Positions 15,924 through 55,542 of a stretch of 64,000 nucleotides of DNA are shown piece after piece. Below the pieces are notes generated by a model. That model did not search any database. It was not told the DNA's origin and saw only the letters and a program-made list of their open reading frames with translations. The position numbers and the translations under genes are program-made. Every line of letters starts with the position of its first letter. Position 1 is the first letter of the stretch. The stretch is from Nymphaea colorata. Taxonomy: Eukaryota > Streptophyta > Magnoliopsida > Nymphaeales > Nymphaeaceae. Where the stretch lies: positions 8,770,334-8,834,333 of the forward strand of contig NC_045147.1 in assembly GCF_008831285.2 (NCBI RefSeq). The letters are read 5' to 3'.

Positions 15924-15994
<71 letters not shown>

Positions 15995-17796: not shown

Positions 17797-18057
17797 ATGG
17801 CGAAGGAGGAAGGGAAGACGGTAACGGAGGCGGTGGCGAAGGAATCTCAGATGATCAGACAAAGAGGATGGTTGTGCTGATTCCGGCATCCCCTTGCCCA
17901 ACGTTGCCAACATGATCCTGGCGAAGGTAATCGAGTACTGCAAAAAGCACGTCGACGCCCAGAAGACCGGCGACGACAAGATCCAAGAAGAAGAGCTAAG
18001 GCGTGGGATGCCGAGTTTGTTAAGGTGGACCAAGCGATGCTCTTCAATCTCATTCTG
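17797..18057 (+). pseudogene. SKP1-like first exon, frameshifted
   Basis: SKP1 is the adaptor that joins F-box proteins to CUL1 in SCF ubiquitin ligases. From the ATG at 17797 the frame reads [12 protein letters not shown]. After a frame change it reads [33 protein letters not shown] and, after a second frame change, [19 protein letters not shown]. These match the BTB/POZ-like N-terminal half of plant SKP1/ASK proteins, where DCADNGIPLPNV and [10 protein letters not shown] are conserved. The match ends at LIL followed by GTATTC, close to the position of the usual SKP1 intron. The downstream exon (ANYLNIKGLLDL and the F-box-binding C-terminus) is absent. Two frameshifts and the missing second half make it a fragment, the first of a series of plus-strand fragments. 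Confidence 0.82.
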
Positions 18058-18260
18058 GTATTCTCCTCGGCCATCTCCCTCTTCTTTATTCGGTCCTCTA
18101 TCTTGGGTTTAGGGTTAGGGATTGTGATTCTTGCGATCTAACCATTCCGACAAGATTTTGCTGTCTGCATGACCCAATGGTTGCATTAATCGTAGTCATA
18201 AAAGGACATAACTGTCGCTTCTGGAATTTCGTGTTAGAACTGAACATACACTGCATGCAG

Positions 18261-18434
18261 GTCTTAAATGAGGATCTATGGCTTGTGGAAGGTCAGCAAG
18301 AGCGGATGATCAATGGGCCAAATGTTTGGAACTGGCCTGTGGCATATGATAAGCTTGGAGCAAGGTACAGAATATGGAGAGATGCACTTGAAAGAGGCAA
18401 CAAGAAGCTTCCATTCGAGAGGTCCACAGAGTGA
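18261..18434 (+). pseudogene. Chlorophyllide a oxygenase (CAO) last-exon fragment
   Basis: CAO is the chloroplast Rieske-type monooxygenase that makes chlorophyll b. An acceptor (TGCATGCAG) ends at 18260. It is followed by 58 codons with an open frame ending in TGA at 18432: VLNEDLWLVEGQQERMING, NVWNWPVAYDKLGARYRIW, and GNKKLPF. The motifs NEDL-x-LV-x-GQQERM and P-V-x-YDKLG-x-RYR-x-WR are those of the CAO C-terminus as I recall it. A few extra residues follow the usual end. The Rieske and iron-binding exons are not present upstream, where the SKP1 piece lies instead. The frame itself is intact, so the capture may be fairly recent. Identification is from memory of the family. Confidence 0.72.
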
Positions 18435-18941
18435 AAACTTCCAAAGAGTAGCTCAAATTCCCACTTATTTGGAAGGGATGGTGAGATTCATTCTTCATGA
18501 AGCTCTAGATAGTATGGATTTTCCTGCCTTTGAAGTTTGATTCACAGGAGTCCATAATTCAATTCCTGGAAGGGCAGAATCAAAATTTCTTTACGTCAAA
18601 GGAAATTGTATATGGGTTAAGGCTTGCAAGCAATTTGCGTCTTAATCGTCTAGAGTATTTTCATGTACAGTGCCTACGCTGATTTTTCTTCTTTTTCACC
18701 CTTTTATGACCCCATCTGAAGGTTCAACGAGGCATATTCCCTTTTTTATGTGAACTGGAAAAATATTTGGCATTATCATGTCGATGGTTAAATTTGATAG
18801 TACAAAGGAAAATTATTTTTGATTCACCTCCTTATACTCAATTGTTGCCATTGAAACTGATTAAATTCGGTATTTTTTCTTCTCTTTCCTTTTCTATTCA
18901 TTTTCCTTTATTTGTGGCTTTGAAATCAAGGACAATTGCAG

Positions 18942-19015
18942 TGCAAAGCATCTCTTCCCAGGAAGGCAACCTTAACTTGAAGATATCTGTCCCACAAGGT
19001 TATCATTTCTCGAAG
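18942..19015 (+). pseudogene. Single captured exon, SOQ1-like
   Basis: The exon is bounded by CAATTGCAG and GTTTG. In frame it reads QSISSQEGNLNLKISVPQGY then HFSK. This resembles the C-terminal segment of plant SOQ1 (the chloroplast HAD/NHL/thioredoxin protein), where a phrase like EGNLNLKI-x-P-x-GYHFSKEA occurs. Only 24 codons are available and the match is from memory, so the name is tentative. Its neighbours are a CAO fragment and PRP4-kinase exons on the same strand. Confidence 0.4.
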
Positions 19016-19084
19016 GTTTGATACCGAAAGGACTTCTCCTATGGCTTGATTATTTTTTGCCTGTTCCTTTTTAACCTATATTCA

Positions 19085-19240
19085 GGGATCATATAGTTAT
19101 AATGTAATAATATATACGAGATTATATATTATTATGTATATACTGCATATATACTAGTTCAAAATATACATACATATTGTAATTATATATGTAACAAATA
19201 TATAATACATATATGTACCATATATATACATACGTATAAC
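19085..19240. repeat. AT-rich palindromic island
   Basis: A short stretch of TATATATTATTATGTATATA-type sequence, similar in composition to the islands at 15200-16460, 24010-24250 and 29764-30035. It lies just upstream of the PRP4-kinase exons. Confidence 0.6.
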
Positions 19241-19526
19241 ATTATTTTGCTTTCTTTGCTTAATCTTTACTCTTTTTAATTTGTTAAAATAAGAGTTTGA
19301 TAGCCTGGAATCTGGATTTATAAAAAATTGCTTGTTGCAGTTCTTCATGAGAATTCTTAGCTACGTGATGCATTGTCTTCCTTAAGTCTAAGAAAAAAGG
19401 AAAATTAACTATATATTTTCTGTCCTCAATTGTTCAGTGCTTCTGTTTCTTTTTTCAGGTGAATGAGGCCAAAAATGTGCTGAAACTTTGCGATTTTGGT
19501 TATGCTATGTTTGCTGGGAAGAATGA

Positions 19527-20024
<498 letters not shown>

Positions 20025-20138
20025 TGAATTTCCATGCCACTGAAGAAGATCCTGTTACAAAGAAGGTGATCATCTTTTCATTATCATGTACTTCAGGTTA
20101 ATTTATCTATAGCATGGTGAAAGTACATCTTGTTTGTG

Positions 20139-20190
<52 letters not shown>

Positions 20191-20299
20191 TTGTTCAGTA
20201 ACAAGTGGCTGGGTAGGGCCATTATGTCCTTTATACCTGCATCTTAATTGACTCCACAAGGACGATGCAGGGAGTTCTTTCCTTGGTCAGCAATACCAT

Positions 20300-22166
20300 A
20301 ATTAGGCAAGCCAAGTAGAGATGTGCACGGAAAGGATGTAAGTGAACAATGCTAATCAGCTAGTTTATAACAAATGTACCTAAATAATCTTCATAAAGTA
20401 AGTAATTAGCTAATGACAAAGTGACTATTGTTGTTGAAAGGGCACTCTTATGTGTTTAAGATAGAAACATCGATTTCAAGATCTGAGTGTGGGAGATTGA
20501 TTTGCGGTTGAAGAAAGAGATTCCTGATTTCTTTCACAAAATGTATAAAACCTATCACTTTTACTGTAGATTTCTGTTGTTCTGTAAAGATTACTGTAGA
20601 TTTAGTGTTTTGTGAAGACATGGCATCAAATTCCAAACAATCCTGCATGACAATGGTCACAAAGGCGAGGAAAATGATTGGTAGAAAGTCATGTGCAAGT
20701 GTTATAATTAGATGATGAACAATAAATAGATGATATTTGATTGTTTTCATTTTTTATTTGCTTAAATAATTTCATCTTGTGTTGCATAAAACTTTGAAGT
20801 TATTTCTTAATGTGTTATTACTTGTAACATTATGAGTATGTTATGTTAATGGATGTTTATTCCCATAAGTCTATATTTATGTGGAACATGTTTATAATGG
20901 AAAACATTTTTTTCTTTATCTTTTCTGTTTTTTTTAATTTATTTTGAACTTTTAACATTAAATTGAATTTGCGGTACATTTATGAAACTGTTGTAATACG
21001 TTATGGTATGGCGTATTTGTTGGTCCCACCAATATGGGTACATTGGTTTTAGTCATTCAACTTGAATTCACTTGGACCAGCTAGTCGTTTTGTGGTCTTA
21101 AACAACACGTACTTGACTTCTCAATTGACAAATAAAGACCGAAAAAATGGTTAATTGGTGTGATTGGTGAGGACTGCTCAACTTAGTCGGTCAAGTGGTC
21201 CATTGATTATGCTCCAGCCAACTTGATAATCATGGACCTGTCAACTGATCATTGGCCAGAATGATAAGCATCTATTTGTCCAATTAGTTGCTAGGTTCCC
21301 GATGACCCAACAATTTATAAGTGCTATGAGGTGTAGTTATGTTATGGAAATGTGGTGTCCTATGATGTGAGAGTTTCTCAAATTTTTTCTTAAGAAATTG
21401 CTCCCAACAATATTAAAATGTGTCTTATCTCTAAAACAAAATGTTGCATCTGCATGAGGTAAAGAAAGTGCTGAGTGTTATCCATATCGGACAATACGTA
21501 TCGTATAGGTTTGAGAAACCTATGCGATACGCATACAACACACGATATGCCTGTGGATCATAGGTGTATCGTCCGCATCATGCGATACAAAGGCTGTACT
21601 GTACGATGTGGCTGATACACCCCCGTATCTTATGATACGGGGACAAAACGGAAAAAACATTGTTTTTTTTGTGCTTCTTTTTCAAATCGCTCCTCCCTTC
21701 CACTTTCTAAACATCTCTAAGAGCTGTGGGAGGTGAGGTTTTACTAGTTTTCTAAAAAAATGAACATATGTTGGTGAACAAATTCCATTTGAAGGCATTG
21801 AAAATTAAAATTTAAAAAAAATAACAAAGAAATGAGGATGAATACGAAGATTATGATGATCATCATTGATGGATGATAATCATGATATTTGCTGCCATCA
21901 ATGTTAAGTATATCTCAATGTTTCATTAGCATAAGGTTGTTATTAAATTTTTTCCTTTAGTTCTATTCATATTTTTTTAATCCTCAACGTATTCTGAGGT
22001 GTTGATACTTGGAAAATCAACTTTTTTTGTCTTCCCTTAAAAATTCTCGTTGGGTATTGCGATAATCATGAAATATGATATGGATTTATTTATCTACATC
22101 CATGCAACATATTTGCATGCCCACACTAGGAAAGCAAAAGTGCTTACAATTTCATTGTTAGTGCAG
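20300..22166. other. Intron-like or intergenic DNA between kinase exons
   Basis: No coding sequence is recognised. The open minus-strand frame at 20750-20448 (100 codons) has no familiar motif. This stretch separates exon c of the unit-0 kinase fragment from its last exon and is far longer than a neighbouring intron, so insertions are likely. Confidence 0.4.
21480..21650. repeat. GATACG-rich repeat element
   Basis: Many direct and inverted copies of GATACG, CGTATC and ACGATA (ATACGTATCGTATAGG, GCGATACGCATAC, CGTATCTTATGATACGGG). Sequences of this style recur in many plant genomes as small nonautonomous repeats. Its ends could not be fixed by eye. Confidence 0.4.
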
Positions 22167-22355
22167 GCCGTTAAGCGACTGCTTGTGAATATTAAGGCAA
22201 ATGATTTTAGTAGTCTTATTTCAAGCTATACTGGTGAGGATCCCAAGATGCTGGCCAATTTCATAGATCTGCTTGATAGAATTTTTGTGCTCGATCCAGA
22301 GAAAAGATTGACAGTATCTCAAGCACTGAGTCATCCATTCATTACGGGCAAGTGA

Positions 22356-23570
22356 ATAAAGAAGCTGATATTTCTAATCCAGAACTGCTGTTGAGTTAGC
22401 TATGCATTTGAATCTTTTATTCAGCCATCTGATCATTGGGCATTTGCTTGTCTCTATCTTTGTCACTTGGACCAAGTGCAAGCAATGCAGACTTCTTGCT
22501 GATCGTGAGCTTAACACAGCCACTCTGGAGAGCTCTCTTACTTGGCGAGTCTTTTCAGTCGAGGTTTGACTGCGCCGGATTTCCTTGAATAGACTCTCTT
22601 GTAAGTTTGGCTGTTGTATAAATTACCGTACAATCCCAAGTGGATATGGAATGAGTTATCATCTTATACTGGTGTTCTACTGTATGAAGAGGCTTCTGTT
22701 TTAACTTTTATATAGGTTTACTTTTCCACTAGCATAGGGTCAATTTTATATCTCTGCAGCACCCTTTCTCTTCCTTTTTTGCTTAATTATATAGTTGCCT
22801 AGACAACCTAGGCGCACCATGTGCACTTCATTGCCTAGGCCCTGAGGGTTTATAGGTGACCAATATATAATATCTCAACGTGCACAATCCTATGGCTATG
22901 CATATAACATTCTTTCATCTCTTGAGAAGGTCCTTCTCAATGACCAAGAGGGTAGGGAAAATAAATTAGATAATTGACACAATGTCGCTATCCTTATCTT
23001 GGAGCACTATAACATTGGGGGCACATTTAAAATCACATTTGGAGTCAAGCCTTAACATTGTCTTTGATGGCTGCAATTTCATTTTGGTGATCAGCCATTG
23101 GTGTTGGATGAAAAAATGTAAATGGGATGCTGTAGAAGGTAGGAGACAGGTTTGAAGAACTACACGAAACAAAATACTAAGGAAATTGAGAGCGGTTAAG
23201 TGGTAAGCAGGAAATTAATAATGGCTAAGTAGGTTCCATGGCAGGAGGCATGTGATCTTTTGCTTGTTGATTTAGCAATGGGATGGATGCAGGGAATAAG
23301 GGCCCTTGTTGGACGAGTGAGAGATGTGAGACCTCTCAGTGAATAGATAGTTAATGTCATAATGTGTATAACCGAAAGGGGTTTCCGTATACATGTTTCT
23401 GACTTTCTTTTGAATAAGTTCCCAACAACTGTTTCATTGTATGGTAGGGTAACTTTTGCCGAACATGATCAATGTTCACAAATAAGTGTCGTTGTTCTTC
23501 GTGTATATATTTTTGTGGAATTGGTGAATTTCAGGTGGTCACTTACTTTTGTTCCCTCAAAATGATGCAG
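22356..23570. other. No gene recognised
   Basis: Follows the kinase last exon; the first few hundred bases may be its 3' UTR. A CCTAGGCGCACC-containing block near 22800-22860 looks repetitive. No protein motif found. Confidence 0.35.
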
Positions 23571-23728
23571 GCGTACGGGAGGAACTTAAAGATGGTTCAG
23601 TTCAGGTGTATAGTGTGCAAGCTTTCATCCCAAAAGATCTTGCAGCACTTGTAAGTGCCGAATTTGTACAAGCAGAAGAGTTTTTTTGGTCAATATTTGA
23701 CGAATGAGAATTGTTTATGGGACAACAG
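23571..23728 (+). pseudogene. Unidentified captured exon
   Basis: A 158-bp stretch bounded by an acceptor (AATGATGCAG) and a donor (CAGGTATGG) translates, in the second frame, as VREELKDGSVQVYSVQAFIP, then KDLAALVSAEFVQAEEFFWS, then IFDE, one TGA at 23705, and ELFMGQQ. The composition and good splice sites suggest a real exon with one nonsense mutation. I do not recognise the protein. Orientation (plus) agrees with the neighbouring captured fragments. Confidence 0.4.
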
Positions 23729-24009
23729 GTATGGCAGAATGGTTCCAGTCTTACTCATGATAAGTTTCGGTAGGTTTCAACAAGGAAACCCTTTCATGTT
23801 TCAATGCTCTTCACCTCTTTGCCCACATTGTTTGTTTTTGCATGTGTGCCTTAGCATTGTCAAATTACACGGTCCAAAATTTATCAAACTAAGTGATTTG
23901 ATATAGGGATCATCTTGCACGTATGTTGCAGTTTCAAATTTTTTTGTTAAGCTTAATGCTTATGTGAAGCATCTGAACATTGCTTGAGTGGAGCCAAAGA
24001 CTGCATTTG

Positions 24010-24012
24010 TGA

Positions 24013-24055
<43 letters not shown>

Positions 24056-24250
24056 ATACCTATATGTATATATATAATATTTTAAAATATAACATATACA
24101 AACATGACATATATATATGTACTATATAACAAATATGTAATATCAGACGTACACATATATATTATCATACAATATGTAATATATATGTACATACATGTGT
24201 GGTATAATATTTCATGTATAATACATGTATATTATATAATATATTATTAG
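24010..24250. repeat. AT island, left half, split by copia element 2
   Basis: AT microsatellite and palindromic AT sequence ending ATTAG (24246-24250), where copia element 2 begins. The right half resumes at 29764 with the same ATTAG. Confidence 0.8.
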
Positions 24251-24501
24251 TGTTGATAGATTGTGGGTTTCGGGTCCGGATCCATACCCGACCCGACTTG
24301 TGGCCCGTTTTGGGCTCTACTTAAGTCATGTAACCCTAATCCTTAAGAGTTAATGATAATCTTAAGAGAGAGAGAGAGTCTGGCTGCTAGTGGGCACCAA
24401 CTGCTCCTCATTCGTGGTTTTTTCTCCCTCGTGTTGAGGGTTTTCCACGTTACATCGTGATCATTGTTTCTCTTCGTCTTCTTCTTGTTCGTATTTCTAC
24501 A
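24251..24501 (+). repeat. 5' LTR of copia element 2
   Basis: A 251-bp LTR starting TGTTGATAG and ending TTCTACA, containing a GC-rich block (GGGTCCGGATCC), CTTAAGAGTTAATGATAATC and an AG run. Paired with 29515-29763. Confidence 0.95.
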
Positions 24502-24513
24502 TGGTATCAGAGC
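24502..24513 (+). promoter_or_regulatory. Primer-binding site of copia element 2
   Basis: TGGTATCAGAGC directly abuts the 5' LTR and is complementary to the 3' end of plant initiator methionine tRNA, the usual primer for this superfamily. Confidence 0.92.
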
Positions 24514-25198
24514 CGTGAAGTTCCGACGTTTCTGGTTTGTCTTTTGCCCGTGTTGGAGGAGGATTCGCCCGGCACTGTTCATTGACTCGCCCGGCACTGT
24601 TCATCGTCTCGCCCGGCACTGTTCATCGCCCGTGCCCGACGCTCGTGCCCGAGCTTCGCCCGACGCCCCTGCCCGACGCTCGTGCCCGAGCTTCGCCCGA
24701 CGCCCCTGCCCGACGCCTGAGCTTCGTCTGTCGCCCCGCCGCCGTCTCCGCCCAGCGCCGCCCTGATCAGCGCCGCTCAGGATTCCGCCGTCTCCGCCTA
24801 GCGACGACCGGCCCAGCGACGCCCTGATCAGCGTCGTTCCTGTTCAGTCGCTTCCGCCCAGCGTCGGCCTGCCCAGCGACGCTCTGTCCAGCGGCGTTCC
24901 TCTCTGTCATCCGATGCATTGCCCACCGCCGTGTCTTTTTCCGGCGGTCTGCTTCCGCCGGTGCGCCGCTCTGCCTGGTTCCGGCGGTCTGTTTCCGCCC
25001 AGCGCCGCGCCGTTCTGCTTCGTTTTTTTTTCTCCGGCGCTGCCTCTCTGTTGCTGTCTCTTCTGTCGGTGAGGTTTAGGCGTTCTCCTTTTTGTCCGTT
25101 GCCTGCTCTCTGCCTTTTTTGGTGTTGTATTGTGCTGTTGCTCCCCGCTGCCCTTGCTGCCTACTGGGCTTCACCTGTAGCTAGACTGGTCTGTGATT
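24514..25198 (+). other. Untranslated leader of copia element 2
   Basis: A GC-rich leader (unlike the AT-rich surroundings) with short tandem repeats such as TCGCCCGGCACTGTTCATCG (about 24570-24630) and CGACGCCCCTGCCCGA-type units (24640-24720), followed by CAGCGCCG- and CAGCGACG-type units. Open frames here are repeat-driven and not supported as genes. Confidence 0.7.
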
Positions 25199-28100
25199 AT
25201 GGCAGCCTCTTCCTCGTCAACCGTCAACACCAATCCCACTAAAATAGGGGCTTTTAGAACTGAGAATGTTCCCATGCAGGTCATCACTCTTCGCCTCACC
25301 AAGGATAATTATTTCTCGTGGTCGCCTGCTATGACCATGGGGATTGCTGGCCGTGGTCGCATGGCCTATATTGATGGGAGCAACCCCGAACCAGCAAGAA
25401 CAAGTGATGTGTGGCATACTTGGTTTCTTGAGGATAATCAAGTGAAAACTTGGATTGTCAATTCCGTTTCCGCCGATATTCAGCCCCTTATCCTTCGGAA
25501 GAAGACTGCTAGAGACATGTGGGTGGTCCTCGAGCAAATGTATGGCCAAAAGAAGACCGCAATTCGTACTTACCAAGTAATGAAGACAGTCTATGGCATT
25601 CGACAAGGGACCTCGTCTGTTGCAGAGTACTATGGGGCTTTGAAAGCCAAGTGGGAAGAGCTTGACTATCATTCTGATATTCCTTGGCATTGTCCCCATG
25701 ATCAGGCGCTCTATGTTGCTCATGAATGGGAAAACATGGTGTTCCTATTTTTAGCAGGTTTAAATGATGAGTTTGAAGGTGTTCGAAGCCAGATTTTGAA
25801 TTCAGGGGAGGTGTCCAGTATTGAAGATGTGTACTCCTGTGTTGAAGCGGAAGAACAGAGAAGGCTTGTTACAAAAGAAGGGAAGAGGGAACTTGTGCCC
25901 TATAACGAGAGATCTGCTCTCGTGAGTCGTGGTCCTGGCGGCCCATCTAGGTCTCTTCGCCGGTGCACTCACTGCAAGAAGACAGGTCACACTGTGGATT
26001 ATTGCTGGGATCTTCATCCAGAAAAGAAGGGGAACAGAGGGAGATCTTTGACTGGGAGAATGCCTGTGTCTGAGGTGCAAGCCCCTAGTGGAGAAAAAGT
26101 CTCCATTTCTGCTGACCAGCTTCGTGAACTAAGGGCTTATTTGGGCAGACTCGATGTCAACAAGACTGAGACCTCAGAGGGAACTACAGCTAATCATGCT
26201 CTTGCAGTTATTGGCAATCAAGGTAACTCTTCTGTGGGGGAATGGATTGTCGATAGTGGTGCTACTCATCACATGACAGGTAATCCAAAATTGTTTCATG
26301 AGTATAAGTTGTCCTCGGGAAGGGAACGTGTTTCTCTTGCAGATGGTTCCTCTACCTGTGTGGCAGGCGAAGGCACTCTGTCCTTGTTGGACAAATTTCA
26401 TGTGCAGGGCGCTTTACATGTTCCCCAGTTTCCTTTAAATCTCTTATCCGTCAGTAGACTTACTAAAGAATTGAATTGTGAACTTATATTCTCTGCCGAT
26501 CGTTGTGTTTTGCAGGACTTGGTGACAGGGAAGAGGATTGGGATTGGTTTAGCTTCTGATGGATTATATCGTCTTCCCATACGTGTGGCTACTGCTCTGT
26601 TGACAGCGATCCGCAAGACAGATAAGAGAAGAGAAGATTGTCTTCAGTCTTTTATGTACTGGCATGAACGTTTTGGGTATTTACCTTTTGGGATTTTGAA
26701 ACATTTGTTTCCAGACTTGTGTTCCTCCTTTGATGTGTCTTCCATTTCTTGTGATGTTTGTCAGTTTGCCAAACATGTGAGGGCTTCGTACCCTCTTTCT
26801 TCTAGTTGTGCTAATGAAGCTTTTTCCCTGATTCACTCTGATGTATGGGGACCTTCGGGCATTCATACCCGTCAAGGTTTCCAGTATTTTATCACTTTCA
26901 TTGATGATTTCTCTCGTGCTACATTTATATACTTGTTAAAAGACCGCAGCGAGGTTCCTCGAATCATCGAGACATTTATTCTTCTTGTGCATACCCAGTA
27001 TGGTGCGAATGTTAAAACTTTCAGGTCCGATAATGCCCGTGAGTACATGTGTCGGCCTGTTGAGGAGTTTCTTAGACAACGGGGGATTGTTCACGAGACA
27101 TCCTGTAGTTACACCCCCCCCTCAAAATGGGGTAGCTGAAAGGAAAAATCGTCAACTTCTTAATGTCACTAGGGCTCTTTTGTTTCAGAGAAATCTTCCT
27201 AAACACTATTGGGGTGATGCAGTTCTTACTAGTGCCTATCTTATTAACCGCATGCCCAGTCGTGTTTTGAATGGTAGGACTCCCCACTCGTTGCTTCCTG
27301 GCAGTCGTCCACCATTTCCTCTTCCTCCTCGTGTTTTTGGTTGTGTATGTTTTATCCATGATCACAGTCCAAATGTTAAGAAACTTGATCCTAGGTCTAT
27401 CAAAGGTGTCTTTGTTGGATACTCCCCTACGCAAAAAAGATACAAATGTATTGATCCTATTACTGGTCGAGCTTATGTTACGAGGGATGTTACCTTCTTG
27501 GAACATGCCTCTTACTTTGGTGCGAATCCTCTTCAGGGGGGAGCAGTCTGTGGGCAGGGAAGAGTATTCTCAGAGACAGGAACTTCAGTTTATAGATTTC
27601 TTGGACTACAAGAAAGCAGAAGTGACTGTTGATGTGCCTGAGAAGGAGGAACGGGGTGACAATAGCATTGAGAAAGAAGGCCCTCAGTTGTTTGGACAGT
27701 TCTACTCTAGACGAGGTACTCAGACAGAGGTGATGACTTGTGATGCTAGATCTACTTCCAATCCCAATGCCACTCCTTCCCTGGATGAACCAAGTCCTAC
27801 CAAGGAGACCGTGGAGACTCATGATGAGGTTGAAGAGAAGAATGACGATCTTCCCATTGCCCTGAGAAAGGGTGTCAGGTCATGTACTCAACACCCCATT
27901 GGTAATTTTGTTTCTTATTCCAGACTTGGGAAAGATTACAAGTGCTTTGTTTCTACTCTCTCTTTGGCTGTGATTCCCAGGACTATCGCTGAAGCTCAAA
28001 GTGACTCCAAGTGGGCTGATGCAATGAAAGAAGAAATAGATGCCCTAAGAAGAAACTTGACATGGGAAGTGGTGAAGATTCCTGAAGCCGCTCACCTAGT

Positions 28101-29520: not shown

Positions 29521-29763
29521 TAGATTGTGGGTTTCGGGTCCGGATCCATACCCGACCCGCCTTGTAGCCCGTTTTGGGCTCTACTTAAGTCATGTAACCC
29601 TAATCCTTAAGAGTTAATGATAATCTTAAGAGAGAGAGAGTCTGGCTGCTAGTGGGCACCAACTCCTCCTCATTCGTGGTTTTTTCTCCCTCGTGTTGAG
29701 GGTTTTCCACGTTACATCGTGATCATTGTTTCTCTTCGTCTTCTTCTTGTTCGTATTTCTACA
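29515..29763 (+). repeat. 3' LTR of copia element 2
   Basis: A 249-bp partner of the 5' LTR, followed by the target duplication ATTAG. The polyprotein stop codon overlaps its first six bases. Confidence 0.95.
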
Positions 29764-30040
29764 ATTAGTATATATGTTATAGTATTATATATATATACAA
29801 TAACGCGTATCATATATATTATACGTTTAACATATAATACATAATATAATATATTATATATTATCCGTATACATTATTGTTCTAGTAATATATCATTAAT
29901 AGACATTACTATAATTATATACATTATGCATTATAATACGTGTATAAAGTATGTTATACGTAATAACTTCTAATGTATATATAATGTTATATGTTTATTG
30001 TATTTGATATACAATATAACATATAAATGTAGTATTTATT
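29764..30040. repeat. AT island, right half
   Basis: Continues the AT-rich palindromic sequence interrupted at 24250 (ACATATAATACATAATATAA and similar). It lies directly upstream of the callose synthase exons. Confidence 0.75.
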
Positions 30041-30127
30041 TCTTCTGCGATCCTCATTCATGATTTAAATTACTATGAGCTTGTTATCTATTTGATGCTT
30101 AAGGTCAATTTCATATTATGCGTGCAG

Positions 30128-30941
30128 GGGCTGACTATCCTTGCTTTCAACAAAGGGAAGTTCAATTCAAAGACCTTAAATGAGCGACTAAGTTTAGGTC
30201 CTACTTTTGTAATAATGAAGTTTTTTGAGAGTAAGTTTACCAGTACTGCTTGCAATTCTCTTGCGTTGTTTCGTGATGTCATTTAGGAGGCAAGGAGTAG
30301 GCCATGATTTTACATCATTTGTTTCCTTTAATCATGTAGGTGTACTGGACATTGTCATGATGTATGGGGCATATTCAACAACTCGTCGTTTAGCTGTGAT
30401 GAGAATTGTTCTCCGTTTTCTTTGGTTTGGTGTTGCTTCAGCATTTGTATCGTCTCTTTATGTGTGAGTTTTTTGTGTTGCTGTTTCTTTTTTAATCTGA
30501 AAGACTTCACTTTGATGTCGCTGCACCTACTGTTTTATGTTTATTTGTCCTATGTTGAATCATGTAGTCATAGATTGTCAAATCTAAACTATGATAGTGA
30601 TAACCATGCAGGAAGGGACTTCAAAATCCAAAGTTTGTTTTCTACAAGACCTACATCTTTGTTCTAATTGGATATGCAAGTGTCCAGTTGGCCATTAGCC
30701 TACTCATGCGCATTCCAGCTTGTCATAGGCTGACAAACCGATGTGATCAATGGCTTGTTATGAGATTTATCAAGTGGATGCATCAGGTTTGGTTTCTCCA
30801 TTGTTCTTCCCATTGTATCTTCTGTTTATGTTTCATCTTTCTGACTGTTTCCTTTCCAACATATGCAGATAAGGCCATTGGTCAATCCTACAAAAGGTAT
30901 TAATGGGCTAGAGTATTCGTGGCATGATCTTGTATCAAAAC
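30128..30941 (+). pseudogene. Callose synthase (GSL) gene fragment, four clean exons
   Basis: Callose synthases are large plasma-membrane 1,3-beta-glucan synthases. Four exons with GT-AG borders keep one open frame. 30128-30230: LTILAFNKGKFNSKTLNERL and LGPTFVIMKFFE. 30340-30463: VLDIVMMYGAYSTTRRLAV and a hydrophobic FLWFGVASAFVSSLYV. 30612-30786: KFVFYKTYIFVLIGYASVQL, LMRIPACHRLTNRCDQW and IKWMHQ. 30869-30941: IRPLVNPTKGINGLEYSWHD. The order is that of the C-terminal membrane region of plant callose synthases (nearest, from memory, the GSL8/GSL10 type). Between the third and fourth exon the family normally has an RYYVGRGMYER...FSFAYFLQ segment, which is missing although both splice borders are good. 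Upstream catalytic and downstream exons are absent, so it is a captured fragment. Confidence 0.82.
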
Positions 30942-33102
30942 GTGAGTTTTTGCTGCCTTTGTCTAGTCATAAAATACTTTCGAGGGATTAAACTAGGAAG
31001 GTAAAATGTTCTTGTGGCCTGCATAAGCTCACATGCCTAACAACAATGGAAACAATGCATCTGTCATGCCAATGTTGAAGATTGCTGCTCTTTTCCTGAA
31101 TCCTTTCCTGCAGGCCTCATGATATGATAGTTCATCACTGATGCTGTTTCTGTTGTTTTCTGCTGCTAAGCAGGCTGCAGGCCAATTTCTCTCTGATTAA
31201 TTTGTTATTGTATAAGTATTTTGTTCCACATACAGGATCACTCTAAGTGCTTCTGAATTTGGCTATTTTTGAATAATTTTGAATTTGGCTATTTCTGAAT
31301 AATTTTGGGAGACAGTTCACACTAAATTCATACTTTGATTTCGTTTTTCTTTTCTGTTGGTTACATTTCATGACGATTTTTTGTCAAGTATTGGAGTTTC
31401 TTGATTATTATAAACCTGAGCATTTTGTACTTTGGTATTCTTTTGCCTTTAAGAAACTTTTTGTTATTTTTTTTTTGACAATGGACTTCAATTAGATTGT
31501 GAAATTAAAGTTTATAATCATGTAACCAGGGCACAAGACTGATCAAACTTTGCTGGATAGTCGTACATTTAGAGTCTAAAAGAGTCCAATCCCGTAGTTG
31601 TCATTATCATGCACTTGATGATTTTACAAAACCCACCACATAGGATTGGTTTATCCTGGGATTCCTTTGGGGAAAGATAAGAGCTTAACCTAAACAATTT
31701 GTAGCACTTTCAATTAGTTGAGGACTCAAACATTTATGGAAAATCGTCCCTATTAAACCAACCTTTCGTATAGAAGTCCCTAGGAGAGTTGGTGAAGTTC
31801 ATTTTTCTACCCAACCAACCTATGCTATTTTGCATTCACCCTCTTCTTTAGGGTAGAATTCCTTCATCTTGGTGATATACCATTTGATGTTAAGAATTTT
31901 TGTAAAAGTGATAATTTTGAGTTTTGCTTAAAAACATTTTAAAAGTGTCTTCTCACACAATGATGTGGCTTTTCTTTATTCTTAGTACCTCCTTGAGCAG
32001 AAGGATAAAATTTCAAATTTTTGTTGCCAAACAATAAAAGAGGAAAATTGAAAAGATTCTGAATATGAGCAGTAAGGAAAGGTCCTGTGAAGTGAGAAAG
32101 TCGAGACTAGGAAATGCTATTGACTCTGGTAATCAAGCATTTGCAAGGATTTAGCAGGAAGTTATCTTGGGAGAGAAGCCAAAATCCTTTGTAAGATCTT
32201 GGTAGGTAGCAAAATGAGAGTTGAGAGATTGGCTCGGGGGCTTGTGTAGTCGTTCCTCTGGGTCGGTAATCAAGAGTACCGGGTAGGCATATAGGTGATT
32301 TATGTCTATACCGCGAAGATAACGACTTATGAACCTTTGGTTCATCGAAAACCCACAAGGTGAAGTAGGTTGGATATGCTACAAAGCTACACATAACCAC
32401 CAAAGCGGTGGAGCTTCGTAGTAGCCTTTGGGGTGGTGAGGTATTCCCTCAAAGGTGAAGGTCGGCCTAAAAAAAAAAAAAAAATCAAGGAAAAAAATAT
32501 TTTAAGGCAAAAGCAGAATGCTAAAGAAAGAAAGAAAAAAAAGAGGAAAAAAAAAACAAAAGGTGTCTGCCAAGAGATGAAAGGCATGAAGGCTGAACTC
32601 ACAGGAATTGAATGTGAAAATCTTTGGTAGATGTGCGGTCTTAGGGTCAATATCTTCTCCTATTTTTGATTACCTAAGATGCCGAGGACGATTCCTTTAT
32701 GTTCATATTTTGGAAATTGAAAGGCATCCCTTCTAGAGATTTGACGACATTGACGCGAAATGAATCCTAATGCTTGTACGGTAGGTGCTATGTGTAAATG
32801 AAGGCCATCTTATTTTCACAACACGAGCACTCATGCTTATTAGTTAAATTGATGGTTTTTGAACTATTTCAAACTAAAAACTTGACATCTCTAGTCATAG
32901 GAGGAACTAACCAATCTCCTTTAGTCTTGAAATATGTTTGTCATTTCATTCCCATTCCCCTTTGGCCTTGAAAGATGTTGGCCATTCCATTACCAAACCA
33001 TTAGTCCATTCATGGAATAGATGGAACTCCTCGAACCTAGTCAACTCATGTTGAGCGTGACAAATTTCATTTTCTTTGTCTCAAGAAATGCATATCATTT
33101 GG
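30942..33102. other. No gene recognised
   Basis: The first part may be intron of the callose synthase fragment. An A-rich block (32470-32565) and a minus-strand open frame over it are compositional. Sequence from 31500 on is ordinary AT-rich DNA without a familiar protein match. Confidence 0.4.
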
Positions 33103-33176
33103 GACAAGTGATTAAGCCTGGCCCATCATTCCATCTTAAGACAAGTGATTAAGCCTGGCCCATCATTCCATCTTAA
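33103..33176. repeat. Perfect tandem duplication of 37 bp
   Basis: Two adjacent copies (33103-33139 and 33140-33176) starting GACAAGTGATTAAGCCTGG and ending CATCTTAA. No flanking element recognised. Confidence 0.9.
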
Positions 33177-33606
33177 CCTAGTGTCTTCAACATAACCCAG
33201 ACTTAGGGTTGAGTCTGTCATGGAACACCTCTTATCTCTTTTCAAAAGGACCAATCAATTTTGTAGCCCATTTTGAACTGTGACATTTTTGAAAGGTTCT
33301 ATTCATCGAAGTTGCATGGGTTTTGGGTTTTATGTCCTCGGGTCCATCATGGTTTTAGACGAGGATAATGCTTAGTTTCTCTTGTATCACGTTAGTGTCT
33401 GGTTAGTTGAATAGATCCTTTAGTCAGCTATTGCAATGTCCAGCGGTTAAGGTCATTGGTTTGATTTGTATTTTGTAGGATTCTATTTTGATTTAGTTTG
33501 ATTATTTAGTTTTGTTGAGTTGGGCAATTGTTTTATGCTTTAATGGTTTCCTGCATAGTGTCATGTTTAGTTTTCACTTTCATTGTGACATGGGTTGTTT
33601 AGGTGC
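33177..33606. other. No gene recognised; left border of the tandem array
   Basis: Ordinary non-coding sequence. Similarity to the array units begins abruptly near 33607 at CTTTCTATAATGGGC, in the middle of the TIC110-like exon. Confidence 0.4.
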
Positions 33607-34408
33607 CTTTCTATAATGGGCATATTGAAGAAAAAAAAACGTGAGTTTACATTATGCAGTTTCGGGATTCATCTAAAATTGCTTGTTGCAGTTCTTCATG
33701 AGAATTCTTAGCTACGTGATGCATTGTCTTCCTTAAGTCTAAGAAAAAAGGAAAATTAACTATATATTTTCTGTCCTCAATTGTTCAGTGCTTCTGTTTC
33801 TTTTTCAGGTGAATGAGGCCAAAAATGTGCTGAAACTTTGCAATTTTGGTAATGCTATGTTTGCTGGGAAGAATGACACCATAGTTGTTTCTCTGTTCAG
33901 TAAGTCCTCCATTTGGTTCTATTGAAGTATAGTTGTATCTCTATTCATTAGTTGTTTTTACTGCAACTTTGAAAATCTGTTGCGTGTGCAAATTAAGGTA
34001 CTTCTTTGTGTGATGTGTATGCTTCTGAATCGTGATGTGAGGGTTATTATTGACTGGTTTCTTGAAACTGCAGTTCTTGGCTTGCCGTATGACCATGCTT
34101 TGGACATATGGTCGGCTTCATATGGAGTTAAAAGGTCCATTTCATAAAAAGATGCTCAGGAAGGTATGCGATTTTTTGGCATGGAAAGTATACTTACTTT
34201 GGTCGACTGATTTTGTTTATCTTGTGATTGATATCTTTTTTTACTCTGTCTTCTATTTTTGCAATCCTTTACAGATCATCATTTTGATCAGGATCTGAAT
34301 TTCCATGCCACTAAAGAAGAGCCTGTTACAAAGAAGGTGATCATCTTTTCATTATCATGTACTTCAGGTTAATTTATCTATAGCATGGTGAAAGTGCATC
34401 TTGTTTGT
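33607..34408 (+). pseudogene. Array unit 1: truncated TIC110-like/PRP4-kinase cassette
   Basis: Starts inside the TIC110-like exon. Kinase exon a reads LKLCNFGNAMFAGKND, so the D of DFG is changed to N. Exon b has lost about 73 bp: ATATGGTC joins directly to GGCTTCATATGG, deleting the [11 protein letters not shown] region. The acceptor of exon c is lost (TTTTTGCAATCC). The AT tract and following 3' segment are missing. It is the most decayed unit and lies at the left edge of the array. Confidence 0.85.
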
Positions 34409-39125
<4,717 letters not shown>

Positions 39126-40912
39126 GGGAGTTCTTTCCCTGGTCAGTAATCTGGAGAAGTGCAGAACTTACTAGTTTCCTGTACTTCTGATTTGAAGCAC
39201 ATGATGGCCCCTCAACCAGAGATTTGAGGTGCTTCGGAGAGGAGGACTCAACTGGAGATCACCATCTTGCTGTGCGCAAGATCTGAGCCTGTGGAGAAGT
39301 GCTGAATACCAACGATTGTATTGGCCTTCTTCCTTGGTGAGTGCTGGACTAGCTCCAGCAAGGTACATCCGAACCCCCCTATTGTTGCGTGGGAGGGTGC
39401 ATTCTATTTCCAGCCAACCTTCGTGTTTGCAGTTGTAGGGAATCCTCTAAAGCTCGTTTAGCCGAGGACACATTCCCAACCTTTTGGACTTACCTAGGGC
39501 GAAGGGTGTGGATTGCTCGTTCTAGGGATTCCATGAATGGTTTGGCATGGATGAATTATTGTTGAGTGAGGGAGAGTTCAAAATTGTATCGAGAATGCTT
39601 GTAAAGCCTCACATCCCACTCTTGATTGTAGTAGGTTGAAAATTTGGGAGGGACATTCCACTTGTATTTCGGTCCTAAGGGATATATTCAGTCGGGGTTG
39701 TGTCCGACTTGGGATCGAATTTTGTATTCCATATTCTTTTAACCTCCTTCGGGCGTGTTAGTCCCCAATAGATCTTGGGAAGCGACTGCATCTTGGTGAG
39801 ATTTCAGCAGCTACAAGGGCAGGGCGCATCAGTCACTTCTGTCAGAAATAAGTCAGTGCCATAATTCTCATTAAAATATGTTCAGCTAACAGAAAATATG
39901 TTGAAATGCAGTACATATGGATGTGTGGATCTGGATGGCATGTGGCTATGAATTTAGACTGGATCCAGTTAGATCAAAGTCAATGGCATCTGCTTAACAC
40001 TGGCACTTCTGATTGACATTAAAGAACTGTATAAAAGAAATAATGCTGATAGGGTCTACTTTTTATCTCGAAAATCTAAATGCTGCTTTCTATTTTGCAT
40101 CTCATGTTTGATACAACAAAACGGATCTCATTTTTTTTTTCTTCCTGAGAACAGTAGGAAAGCTGACCTTTCTCAACTCTGATTTCTTCCTGTATGAAGT
40201 TAAAAAATCAAGAGCATTTATGACAAAGGAATAAACAGTATGATACCTATAGCCTGCTTATCAAGGATTCATGTCGTCTCATTAAAATTCATCCAGATTG
40301 TCTAGCCACTTATTGATGTTCTGGGATGGTGGTCAATGTCTAATTCTGGTTGCATTGTGTATCTTATTGTTCAACATGTAATTGTGTGCATTTAAGCAAA
40401 TTCCAAGAAGGATTATCTTTTTTTCTTCGTACTTGCAAGACTGATTTGTGATATTTTGCGTTCTGACCTGAGCTCAATCACTAACTTGTATTATTATGTG
40501 TTATTGAAATTTATTTAGTTTCTTAAACTTTCAACTTTCAAGCCTCTTAAGTGCTTATATGTCTGTCATTCACTGTTTAATAATGAGAAATTCACTGCAT
40601 GTATTCAATAATTATTATGATGTTATATGAAGGTTTTGTGTACACATATGTACATTTTATAGTATATATGCATGTTAGCTAATTTGTATCTATAGGTATA
40701 CCATTGTTTTTCTTTGTTGATTCCTTTTTCTGTACTGTTTCTTTATTTTTTGCTTTTTCTGTTTTCCATGTCAGCCATTAAATGGTGTCTGGAGCTATTA
40801 ATTGGCTAGCCGCACAGCTTGAAGTCCTGTGGTTGGGACTAGCTCAACAATTATGTCACATGTGTGCAGGGTCTGAGTGTGTCGATGGGGGTATGTGTGT
40901 GTGTGTGTATAT
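39126..40912. other. No gene recognised
   Basis: The first 40 bases continue array sequence, then unrelated DNA begins. The region 39160-39850 is more GC-rich, with no clear protein match; it could be a decayed LTR retrotransposon leader. 39850-40912 is ordinary AT-rich sequence ending in a (GT)n tract next to the LTR at 40913. Confidence 0.4.
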
Positions 40913-41198
40913 TGTAGAAACACGCAGCGGAAGAAGAGAAGAAAAAACAAACACAGGATTTACGTGGAAAACCTCGAAACGAGGTGAAAAACCACGGGGA
41001 AGCTCTAACCTAGGGGCAAAACCGCAACCCTAGGAGAGAGAAACTTAATTCACTTAATTAACAAATACAATAAGTGATTCGAATAAAAGAGGGAGGAAGA
41101 GAGACCCGCCTAGGGAACCGAGCCCATCCTCGGTTCCCGTGCCCATGGGTATCGGGTCCATATCCGGACCCGGTTCCCTATTACAAGGTATTCTAACA
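40913..41198 (-). repeat. 3' LTR of copia element 3
   Basis: A 286-bp segment from TGTAGAAACACGC to ATTCTAACA. The inner edge abuts CTCCCCCTCAAG, which on the minus strand is the polypurine tract CTTGAGGGGGAG, nearly the same as in element 2. No second copy is in the window. Confidence 0.8.
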
Positions 41199-44012
41199 CT
41201 CCCCCTCAAGCTTAGCATACATGTCAAACATGCCAAGCTTGCTAACATTCTTTTCAAATTGAGATGTACATAAGGCTTTGGTTAGAGCATCTGCAATTTG
41301 ATCTTCAGACTTCATATAAGGAAGGATCAACTCCTTTGAATCTATGCGCTCCCGTATGAAGTGGCGATCTATCTCCACATGTTTGGTTCTGTCATGCAGG
41401 ACGGGATTATTTGCCAGGTTAATCGCAAACTTATTGTCACAATACATTTTCATCTTCTCTTCAATTTCAATTCCAATATCTGTTAGAAGAATCTTTAGCC
41501 ATAACATCTCTGTAACCCCCATAGCAACAGCCTTGTATTCAGCCTCAGCACTGGATCTAGAACAGACCTCCTGCCTTTTGCTCCTCCATACCACCAGGTT
41601 TCCCCCTAGAAAGATGTAGTACCCTGTGGTAGACCTTCTGGTATCCGTGCAACCAGCCCAATCGGTGTCAGAGTATCCTTCAATATTTAGCTTGTCCTGC
41701 CATGTATACAGTAACCCCTGGGTTATTATTCAGGTATCCCAACACTCTTTCTGCACTCTTCCAATGACAATCAGTAGGAGCATGCATAAACTGACTCAAC
41801 ACATTTACAGCATAAGTAATATCAGGGCGAGTAAGAGTAAGATAAATAAGCTTACCAACCAGCCTCTGATACCGTCCTTTTCTTTGCTCATCCAGGATGT
41901 TACCAGTTTTGATACTTATCTTTGTACCTGACTCCATTAGAGTTAGAGAGGGCCTGCATCCCAGTTTACCTGTCTCTTTCAGGAGGTCCAGAGTGTACTT
42001 CCTTTGACTCATAACAAGCCCTGTCTCTGATCGAACAATCTCTATTCCCAGAAAGTATCTTAATTTTCCCAGATCTTTAAGGTCAAATTCAGCAGTTAAC
42101 CTCTCCTTCATCTTCCTTTTCTCTTCTTCATCATCTCCTGTGACAATCATATCATCAACATACACAAGAAGAATGCTCACCAGGCCACTTCTCTACTTAA
42201 TGAACATGGTATGATCACCATTTCCTTGTTTGTACCCATTTGTCTTCAGTACCACCCTCGGTCTTTCAAACCATGCTCTAGGGGACTGCTTCAGGCCGTA
42301 CATAGCCTTCTTGAGATGACAACATTTTTCACTTTGAGCAAATCCGGGGGGCATGCTCATATAGACCTTCTCCTCTAGATGGCCGTTCAAGAAGGCGTTC
42401 TTGACATCAAGCTGGTCTATGCCCCACTTCTTTTGCACTGCAAGTGCCAAGATGACCCTCACAGTCTTCAGTTTTGCAACAACAGCAAATGTTTCAAGAT
42501 AGTCAATTCCGTATTTTTGGCTGAACCCCTTTGCAACCAGACGAGCTTTATACTGTTCCACAGTGCCATTAGGTTTATACTTCACACTAAACACCCACTT
42601 GGAACCAACTAAGTGAGTCCCCTTGGGAATATCGACCACTTCTCAAGTGTTGTTCTTTGCCAAGGCAACCATCTCCTCTGTCATAGCCTGTAGCCATTTT
42701 GTAGCCATTTAGGATCCTATCTAGCATCTTCCACACACTTGGGAATCACAGACATAGACAGAGTGGTAATAAAGCATTTGTATTCTTTACTGAGTTTTGA
42801 ATATGAGACAAATCTTTGAATAGGGTGAGAAGTACATGACCTGGTCCTCTTGCGTAGGGCTATGGGAAGCTCTTCATTCATTGGACTTGGTTCATTCGGG
42901 GAACTCACAGGATTGGGATTGGTCACATCAACAGTCTCAACCACATCTTTCTCCTTTCTGGTGTAAACCTGCCCAAACAAATGATCACGGGATGTGGGTT
43001 GATCATCCACAGGGCCCCCTTCTACATGACTGTCTTTATCATCTCTGACTGTATCTTCCACACTGTGACTAAGTTTGTAGTCCAAGAAGTCAGTAAACTG
43101 AATAAGCTGATTTTGAGAATACTCTTCGACACTGTCCCCTATACACTCCCCCTAAAGAGGATTCACAAGGAAATACGCCTCATGTTCATGAAAGGTAAAC
43201 ATCCCGGGAGACATAGATTTTGGAGGTAGTAGGATCAAGACATTTATATCCCTTCTGAGTGGAGGAATACCTCAAGAAAACAGCTTTGACAGACCGAGGG
43301 TCAAGTTTCTTGATGGTGGGACTATGGTTATGAACAAAGCAAACACACCCGAACACCCGAGGAGTAAGAGGCCAGGGGTTATGAGTGGGACTAAGCACAG
43401 AGTAAGGAGTACGGCCATTCAACACGCGAGTGGGCATACGGTTGATGAGGTGGGCACTAGTGAGGAGAGCATCACCCCAGTAGCACTTAGGAACATGCCT
43501 GTGGAACATAATAGCTCGGGTGACATCTAATAAATGACGATTTTTACGTTCGGCCACGCCATTTTGAGGAGGAGTATAACTACAGGACGTCTCATGAACA
43601 ATACCCTTGCCCCGTAGGAAGTCCTCCAGGGATTGAGAGACATACTCTCTGGCATTATCAGTACGAAAAATCTGAACAAAGGACTGAAATTGATTTTCGA
43701 CAAAGGCAACAAAATTTTTGACAACGACAGGAACTTCACTGCGTACTTTCAACAAGTACACAAACGTACAACGGGAGTAGTCATAAAGTAATGGAAACCA
43801 CGACAAGTGGGTACTCCCGAAGGACCCCAAACATCAGAGTGAACCAAAGCAAAAGGACGAGTGGTTTTATTGATAGACACAGGGTACGAAGCCCTAACAT
43901 TAGCAAACTGACACACTTCACATGTGAAGGAGTCTATGGAAACAGAAGTAAACAACCTAAGAAACAACTTCTTAATCAACTGGAATGGGAGATGTCCAAG
44001 GCGCTCGTGCAT
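41193..44012 (-). pseudogene. Copia element 3 pol fragment
   Basis: Minus-strand order: integrase zinc end HERLGHLPFQLIKKL and CEVCQFANVRASYPV (from 44012), HSDVWGPSG, FRTDNAREYVSQ and TPPQNGVAERKNRHLLDVTR (43830-43186); linker; RT with KARLVAKGFSQKYGIDYLET, QLDVKNAFLNGHLEEKVYM, LKQSPRAWF and VYVDDMIVTGDDEEE (42639-41680); RNase H with VVWRSKRQEVCSRSSAEAEY and TKHVEIDRHFIRER (41594-41193). Stops or frameshifts occur at about 42190, 41690, 42650 and in the integrase. It cannot make a functional polyprotein, but individual domains are well preserved, so it is younger than element 1. Confidence 0.88.
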
Positions 44013-44013
44013 C

Positions 44014-44415
44014 TACTTGGTTTTGTTATCATCAGTTCAAATTTCCCAATACTCACTCACGCACACACACACACACAGAAAGGTACGTTTTTGATGAATT
44101 ATAATATTTTGCCTTATATTACTTTTGGCACACCAAATATTGTGTTTCTACACCTTATTGATTTTATTTTAGTAAACCAACTAATCCTGATTAGTCATGA
44201 CTAGTGTTTTTTAGCCCCTTGACTGACTGTGTCTGACTCACGAATTTTGACATCTTAGTTTTTAATAACTTCAACAAAATGTGGTCATACTTTGTTACAC
44301 TGATTCTGGTTGTGAGTGCATCTTCAAGGATACATCAAGACTTTAATTATCTTCTTAACACAGTTTTTTGTATTTATGTTTCTTTGCTGTCTTACATTTA
44401 CTTGGTCTCTATTAG
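44014..44415. other. No gene recognised
   Basis: AT-rich sequence with a short (CA)n tract near 44056-44078. It lies between the truncated end of copia element 3 and the Dicer-like exon and may be intron of the latter's source gene. Confidence 0.35.
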
Positions 44416-44576
44416 GTTAATCTGTTGTTTGCAATCAACGTTGCTGAAGAAGGCCTTGATATTCAAACATGCTGTCTCATTATCTGCTTTGACTTGCCAT
44501 CAACAGTGGCCAGCTATATACAATCCAAAGGTCGTGCTCACATGTAGGAGTCTGAATACCTTCTTCTAGTAGATAG
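44416..44576 (+). pseudogene. Dicer-like (DCL4-type) helicase exon fragment
   Basis: Plant Dicer-like proteins cut double-stranded RNA into small RNAs. An acceptor (CTCTATTAG) and a donor (GATAG/GTAAAT) bound 161 bp in one frame: [43 protein letters not shown], a TAG at 44545, then ESEYLLLVD. This is the end of the helicase C domain, where EEGLDIQTC, FDLPxTV and the motif-VI QSRGRARM are conserved. QSKGRAHM here departs from motif VI. The phrase [14 protein letters not shown] fits DCL4 best from memory. With one nonsense codon, altered arginines and no other exon, it is a fragment. Confidence 0.75.
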
Positions 44577-44599
44577 GTAAATCTCCATTTGTTTTCTTC

Positions 44600-44836
44600 C
44601 TGTGGGATCCAAGTGTTCTTACATGGAACTCAGAATAAATGGTATTCTGAATGGTCTGAGACAAATACAAATAAATGTTCTAGTAGTGGACTATTCTTGT
44701 AATTTGTTATTTTACCCCAATTCTCATTTAACGTGAGAATAGGGCATACTAATGGAATACGTTTTTCAGTTTTCTCTCTCCCTTTCTCAACCTCTTCTCT
44801 TCTCCCATCTCACTTCATGTAACATGGTATCAGAGC
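44600..44836 (+). repeat. Probable 5' LTR end and primer-binding site of copia element 4
   Basis: The primer-binding site TGGTATCAGAGC is at 44825-44836, immediately preceded by an LTR-type end (CATGTAACA). The LTR start is not certain; TGTGGGATCC near 44601 is a candidate. A matching 3' LTR was not found downstream. Confidence 0.6.
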
Positions 44837-52247: not shown

Positions 52248-54473
<2,226 letters not shown>

Positions 54474-55435: not shown

Positions 55436-55542
55436 AACTAATGCGCAAAGAGTGCAATTGATACCAAATGTATAGGATCTTGCACAAAAGTTACATGTTA
55501 TCTTTTCCGTTGTAACAGTTCTAAAAAAGAAAACATCTTACC

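What the first reader, a model, noticed from the sequence alone, without database searches (positions are those of the whole stretch)
17797..44576. Island of captured gene fragments, all in one orientation
Pieces of at least seven unrelated genes (SKP1, CAO, SOQ1-like, PRP4 kinase, an unidentified exon, callose synthase, TIC110-like, DCL4-like) lie in 27 kb, every one on the plus strand. Most keep intron borders, so genomic DNA was copied, not mRNA. Same-strand multi-gene capture with introns is what Helitrons and some Pack-MULEs do; repair-driven filler insertion is an alternative. No Helitron ends (TC start, hairpin plus CTRR end) could be placed by eye, so the mechanism is open. This may be an undescribed family of gene-capturing elements.
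Basis: partly seen in the sequence, partly recalled or inferred. Interest (0 to 1): 0.8.

Follow-up and report, generated by a model that had tools for sequence, protein, structure and literature searches.

The report
Patchwork of copied plant gene pieces
A stretch of a plant chromosome (very probably a water lily) is stitched together from broken pieces of several unrelated genes, and the same patchwork recurs at about a dozen other places, mostly on one chromosome; it looks more like repair-made scrap DNA that was later duplicated than like a known jumping gene.

Summary
The gene pieces are real and were copied from genomic DNA. Source-like loci were found for five: SKP1 (contig C11), CAO (C1), SOQ1 (C10), PRP4 kinase with introns (C8), a callose-synthase-like gene (C2). 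TIC110 and DCL4 pieces were not confirmed. The island runs about 14440-40912 (44025-44665 uncertain) and holds younger Copia elements. It is not a lone event: the SKP1|CAO joint recurs in 13 of 14 other loci picked for matching (9 on C4, 3 on C2, 1 unplaced). Copies differ by 1.6-2.7% on average but by 5.3-8.0% from the sources, so the chimera formed first and spread later. In six of those 13 copies block A lies about 12 kb left of SKP1; in the window it is at the right end. A second PRP4 piece was copied from the island, not the gene, and meets its neighbour at an 8-bp shared word. A callose|repeat chimera is spread over 8 contigs. Helitron 3' ends, inverted repeats and target duplications at borders are no commoner than chance. 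Best reading: repair or template-switch joining, then segmental duplication. Helitron capture with lost or hairpin-less ends is not excluded; unit ends were not reached.

The parts
14440..16873 (+). AT-rich left part of the shared block; 15939-16628 matches the region upstream of SKP1 on C11 at 77%. 14440 is the left border shared with C4 copies; the segment just right of it is itself a high-copy repeat
16922..17650 (.). Window-only patch: about 0.7 kb from C3:17.513M (93-95% identity, about 108 bp of the source missing inside) in place of roughly 0.1 kb of island sequence; limits approximate
   Evidence: no fetched island copy that reaches this region matches 16937-17646
17686..18139 (+). SKP1 piece: exon 1 (frame-broken) and the start of an intron; source-like loci C11:13.205M and C2:32.948M
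18138..18935 (+). CAO piece: last exon and 3' flank; source-like locus C1:21.755M at 94.0%
18932..19092 (+). SOQ1 piece: part of an exon and intron start; source-like locus C10:22.907M at 93%
19094..19247 (.). TA-rich repeat between the SOQ1 and PRP4 pieces; also at other loci
19248..22562 (+). PRP4 kinase 3' part with introns; source-like locus C8:20.422M (91.7-93.3%)
22563..23820 (+). Piece of an unnamed gene (weak HEAT-repeat similarity of an exon next to it on C13); also on C13, C9, C2, C4 and C11
24251..29763 (+). Copia LTR retrotransposon inserted into the island (about 252-bp LTRs, 98.0% identical, TSD ATTAG); C14:12.138M shows the site without it
30027..31517 (+). Callose-synthase-like piece, shortened at 30818/30823 relative to other copies; source-like locus C2:18.346M (92% over 30027-30823)
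31518..33610 (+). Internal piece of a dispersed repeat; its 31518 joint with callose-side DNA is spanned in 11 of 19 loci examined
33607..39150 (+). Five-unit tandem array (about 1.2-kb unit) of repeat end plus PRP4 piece; joint at the shared 8-bp word TCTGGATT
39146..40912 (+). Block A, which lies about 12 kb LEFT of SKP1 in six other copies; contains a 430-bp high-copy repeat at 39832-40261
41195..44020 (-). Part of another Copia element next to block A; ends not defined
44025..44665 (+). Uncertain member: follows block A in seven C4/C683 places too, but at 80-81%, and is closer (90-92%) to places on C10, C1, C3 and C8; a truncated Copia-like element follows at 44666

Best explanation
The island is one copy of a mosaic duplicon. 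Pieces of genomic DNA from unlinked loci were joined by break repair or replication template switching at joints with little or no shared sequence. Shown: the joints, source-like loci on different contigs, retained introns. Inferred: the repair pathway. The finished chimera was then duplicated as a block, mainly on C4 and to C2, with one permuted copy on C10 (shared joints shown; the duplication pathway inferred). The window copy later gained a second-generation PRP4 piece copied from the island itself, a tandem array, a C3 patch and Copia insertions. The pieces are broken and probably have no coding function (inferred).
For: Joints shared: SKP1|CAO and CAO|SOQ1 in 13 of 14 other loci, SOQ1|TA and TA|PRP4 in 11 of 14 (loci picked because they match). 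Source-to-copy distance CAO 5.3%, PRP4 7.2%, SKP1 8.0%, SOQ1 5.8% against mean copy-to-copy 2.5, 2.7, 1.6 and 2.3%. Source-like loci on C11, C1, C10, C8 and C2. 9 of 12 placed SKP1|CAO copies on C4 (binomial 5.6e-9 by length; copies not independent). Block A about 12 kb left of SKP1 in 6 of the 13 copies (coordinates). Shared words at joints: 8 bp at repeat|PRP4, 3 bp at CAO|SOQ1, about 2 bp at SKP1|CAO. Array PRP4 is 2.4-2.8% from island PRP4 but 7.7-8.0% from the gene. No excess of Helitron ends, inverted repeats or target-duplication-like words at borders. The block shared by C2:23.21M and C4:9.0M shows no TIR, TSD or TC...CTRR at its limits by inspection.
Against: The callose|repeat chimera is spread over 8 contigs (11 of 19 loci), which local duplication does not explain easily. 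Short shared words also occur in transposon capture and by chance; their lengths were not tested against chance. The recognised pieces share one orientation. No outer end of a complete unit was seen.
Confidence: 0.52

Rival explanations
1. Stepwise Helitron capture: a rolling-circle element took up gene pieces over several transpositions, and its ends were lost, lack a hairpin, or lie outside the sequence seen.
For: Introns kept, pieces from different contigs, same strand, partly overlapping chimeras on C7 (CAO-TA-PRP4 without SOQ1 in 3.6 kb seen) and C13 (block A, CAO and the HEAT-like piece without PRP4 in 8.5 kb seen). Maize Helitrons are reported to capture stepwise, also from different chromosomes (PMC3288121, passages and section 9). 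Many maize Helitrons lack a strong 3' hairpin (16 of 35; PMC2575219, passages), so my scan could miss them. The callose|repeat joint reads A|TC at 31518 in the window and in the Y and Z copies aligned, and this chimera is dispersed.
Against: Relaxed 3'-end scan 6 against 4.3 random in the window island, none at a border. In the X copies shown the base before TC at 31518 is C, and homology runs on past 31518 and 34638. Island copies cluster on C4, six with conserved long-range spacing.
Confidence: 0.22
2. Pack-MULE or another Pack-TIR element carrying the pieces.
For: Such elements are known to carry captured gene pieces in plants (PMC8277862, abstract start in search listings).
Against: Among 18 block borders the longest inverted match is 13 bp and AT-rich (random sets: mean 12.2, range 8-37) and the longest target-duplication-like word 8 bp (random mean 8.0, range 6-12). 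The island is about 21 kb without the full Copia element.
Confidence: 0.06
3. Unknown replicative element that gathers genomic pieces in one orientation and spreads them.
For: Two layers of chimeras (SKP1-CAO-SOQ1-PRP4 and callose|repeat), the second on 8 contigs; different order of block A in the window.
Against: No coding function or shared termini seen; segmental duplication can explain the C4 copies.
Confidence: 0.14
4. Assembly artefact or normal genes split by misassembly.
For: One pair of copies (C4:9.003/9.008M) spans a 100-N gap at 99.4% identity, and unplaced contigs C683 and C638 may duplicate placed ones.
Against: Joints recur in many loci that differ by substitutions, and source-like loci exist elsewhere. 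No N in the window.
Confidence: 0.03

Closest known systems
Mosaic segmental duplications (duplicons)
   Same: Pieces from several loci joined, amplified as a block, clustered on one chromosome, nested generations
   Different: Described mainly in primates (recalled). Here in a probable early-diverging flowering plant; one five-term search of the held library for such plant duplicons found no paper
Gene fragments moved as filler DNA in double-strand-break repair (Wicker and colleagues as cited in PMC3445842; PMC2686159)
   Same: Genomic pieces copied into breaks, mosaic fillers, small deletions; the C3 patch resembles this
   Different: Maize fillers cited in PMC2686159 are 1-131 bp; here pieces are 0.16-3.3 kb and the product was amplified (passages read)
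Maize gene-capturing Helitrons (PMC3288121, PMC2575219)
   Same: Stepwise multi-gene capture, pieces from different chromosomes
   Different: A set of four related maize elements shares near-identical first 25 and last 30 bp, and Helitrons have TC/CTRR ends; none placed here
Pack-MULEs
   Same: Capture of genomic gene pieces
   Different: Terminal inverted repeats and target duplications not found at the borders seen

Membership tests
Helitron | 3' hairpin followed by CTRR at the element end | tested here: not met
   6 relaxed candidates against 4.3 random in 14400-44700, none on a border; strict scan of the whole window found one, at 52939 minus, outside the island. A hairpin-less end would escape both scans
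Helitron | 5' TC and insertion between A and T without target duplication | tested here: inconclusive
   A|TC at 31518 in the window and two copies shown, C|TC in X copies; unit ends not reached
Helitron | Rep/helicase partner in the genome | tested here: inconclusive
   PF14214 search found nothing, and its 14 control genomes also gave nothing
Pack-MULE / Pack-TIR | Terminal inverted repeats and target duplication | tested here: not met
   18 borders, all pairs more than 150 bp apart, against 60 random sets; true unit ends may lie elsewhere
Mosaic segmental duplication | Same chimeric joints shared by several loci | tested here: met
   13 of 14 and 11 of 14 other loci
Mosaic segmental duplication | Long collinear duplicated blocks | tested here: met
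   block A about 12 kb from SKP1 in 6 of 13 copies; not listed near the other 7 (capped list)
Mosaic segmental duplication | Chromosomal clustering | tested here: met
   9 of 12 placed copies on C4, 3 on C2
Retroposed gene copies | Introns removed | tested here: not met
   PRP4 introns retained
Break-repair or template-switch joining | Microhomology longer than chance at the joints | not tested
   8, 3 and about 2 bp seen at three joints; no chance model was run

The most novel reading that the evidence does not exclude
An undescribed replicative element or process without recognised termini gathers genomic gene pieces in one orientation, seeds dispersed chimeras across many chromosomes, re-copies its own pieces and spreads in a probable water-lily genome.
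Probability: 0.13. Interest if true: 0.75.

Novelty: new member of a known kind. Interest (0 to 1): 0.42.

Why it matters
It gives a set of chimeric joints with source-like loci and partial relatives, in what is probably an early-diverging flowering plant. That makes it possible to test whether plant gene fragments pile up mainly by repair joining and segmental duplication or by transposon capture. If the dispersed callose|repeat chimera proves mobile, it would be a new capture element.

Tried and rejected
Split normal genes or assembly error: rejected because joints recur in many loci. Independent insertions at each place: rejected because joints are shared. Retroposition: rejected because introns are kept. 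My first reading of the window-only patch as three filler pieces was wrong: the 95 bp at 16846-16940 match C4:2.20M, beside an island copy, weakly (71%), so only the C3 piece is clearly foreign. The 30818/30823 gap first looked like an insertion in other copies; comparison with C2:18.346M suggests a loss in the window. 44025-44665 first looked like a plain continuation of block A; its 80-81% identity to C4 copies against 90-92% elsewhere speaks against that. Rfam search of the whole window at gathering cut-offs: 0 matches. Helitron protein family search: uninformative. The C3 locus gene looked PDS5-like by eye, but Pfam gave only a sub-threshold unrelated match and PDB none.
Full report
Context. 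The window lies at C10:8770334-8834333 of a 407.8-Mb plant genome in 783 contigs. Size and layout resemble Nymphaea colorata (409 Mb, 804 scaffolds, 14 pseudo-chromosomes; PMC7015852, passages); this identification is an inference.

Observation. The SKP1, PRP4 and SOQ1 pieces are supported by libraries. CAO and callose synthase are my recognition, backed by source-like loci that carry further exons. All are on the plus strand. TIC110 and DCL4 were not confirmed. The island spans about 14440-40912 and contains a younger Copia element at 24251-29763 with a 5-bp target duplication, whose empty site is seen at C14:12.138M.

Sources. SKP1: C11:13.205M, whose upstream region also matches 15939-16628, with an equally close locus on C2. 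CAO: C1:21.755M over 18138-18935 at 94.0%. SOQ1: C10:22.907M. PRP4: C8:20.422M over 19248-22562 including introns. Callose-like: C2:18.346M at 92%. Genomic DNA, not mRNA, was copied.

Copies. Query 16900-19300 found the chimera at many places (40 of 99 candidates scored). For the joints I picked 15 loci that match the chimera, one of them the window itself; L023 was left out because it is the same place as L021, and L024 because it is the CAO source. SKP1|CAO and CAO|SOQ1 are spanned in 13 of the other 14, SOQ1|TA and TA|PRP4 in 11 of 14. Copies are 1.6-2.7% apart on average (single pairs 0 to 4.5%) and 5.3-8.0% from the sources (its CAO and SOQ1 rows count L023 as well as L021). So the chimera formed before the copies spread. 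Nine of 12 placed SKP1|CAO copies are on C4, three on C2. Not all are independent: C4:9.003M and 9.008M flank a 100-N gap at 99.4% identity, C683 resembles C4:4.02M, and C4:0.03M shares a truncation with C4:8.93M.

Order. In six of the 13 copies (C4:0.03, 4.02, 4.06, 8.87, 8.93M and C683) block A lies about 12 kb to the left of SKP1, in both orientations on the chromosome (coordinates). In the window block A is at the right end. The conserved spacing is what en bloc duplication gives; the window copy is permuted or taken across a unit border. The stretch 44025-44665 follows block A in seven C4/C683 places as well, but at 80-81%, while four places elsewhere match it at 90-92%; I count it as uncertain.

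Second layer. 30818-33610 belongs to a repeat with at least 30 places (40 of 934 candidates scored). Its 31518 joint to callose-side DNA is spanned in 11 of 19 loci examined, on 8 contigs; seven others carry a different left neighbour and one starts elsewhere. The repeat continues beyond the window piece on both sides, and its ends were not reached. The callose piece alone gave 34 matches with all 29 candidates scored.

Re-copying. The PRP4 piece in the 33.6-39.15 kb array is 2.4-2.8% from the island PRP4 and 7.7-8.0% from the gene; two of the five units are identical, the first differs from the others by 3.7-3.9%. Its joint with the repeat lies at TCTGGATT, present in both partners. C4:1.06M has the same joint without an array. 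The C3 patch is absent from every fetched island copy that reaches the region and replaced about 0.1 kb.

Partial relatives. C7:3.45M carries upstream CAO exons, then TA repeat and the same TA|PRP4 joint, without SOQ1 in the 3.6 kb seen. C13:2.01M carries block A, CAO exons and the HEAT-like piece without PRP4 in the 8.5 kb seen. These suggest several rounds, though deletions from a fuller ancestor could give the same pattern.

Transposon tests. Relaxed Helitron 3'-end scan: window island 6 against random mean 4.3 (range 1-8); C2 copy 6 against 3.3 (0-6); C4 copy 5 against 2.9 (0-6) (10 first-order Markov simulations each). All three are slightly above the random mean and none is outside the random range. 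No border pair exceeds random inverted or direct repeats. The block shared by C2:23.21M and C4:9.0M starts at GGGTGTC and ends at TTTCCAA without a target duplication, by inspection. These are negatives for the borders seen, not for lost or unseen ends, and a hairpin-less Helitron, as reported in maize (PMC2575219, passages), would escape the scan.

Verdict. A mosaic duplicon made by joining and duplication is the best reading (0.52). On checking I lowered it from 0.55 and raised Helitron capture from 0.20 to 0.22, because block A was located near SKP1 in only 6 of 13 copies, 44025-44665 became uncertain, and hairpin-less Helitrons are on record. Papers: passages of PMC7015852, PMC3288121 (plus its section 9), PMC2686159, PMC2575219, PMC13317346 and PMC3445842 were read; others were seen in listings only. 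I saw no report of this island in three searches of the held library: 12 papers listed, none held, 8 listed of 864.

Noticed in passing
window 52938-52972, minus strand: Strong Helitron-like 3' end: 8-bp perfect hairpin (CTCTGCCC/GGGCAGAG), 11 bases, CTAAT. Outside the island; copy number not checked.
   Followed up: no
window 53685-54473 +: MYB transcription-factor exon (Pfam Myb_DNA-binding 2.8e-19) beside the repeat-rich region.
   Followed up: no
window 55501-55929 -: By eye, pieces of a potassium transporter (HAK/KUP-like) on the minus strand; not tested.
   Followed up: no
window 39832-40261: 430-bp high-copy repeat; most copies listed share the same limits at 95-97% identity on many contigs.
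   Followed up: partly
window 57657-57911: 42-bp unit repeated about six times within a stretch that looks Copia-like by eye.
   Followed up: no
C4 about 9008006-9008105, between L012 and L014: 100-N assembly gap between two 5.6-kb copies at 99.4% identity; the tandem may be an assembly duplicate.
   Followed up: partly
C2:23213612-23214998: About 1.4-kb insert in this island copy between positions matching 16873 and 17686, with a GC-rich palindrome near its left end.
   Followed up: no
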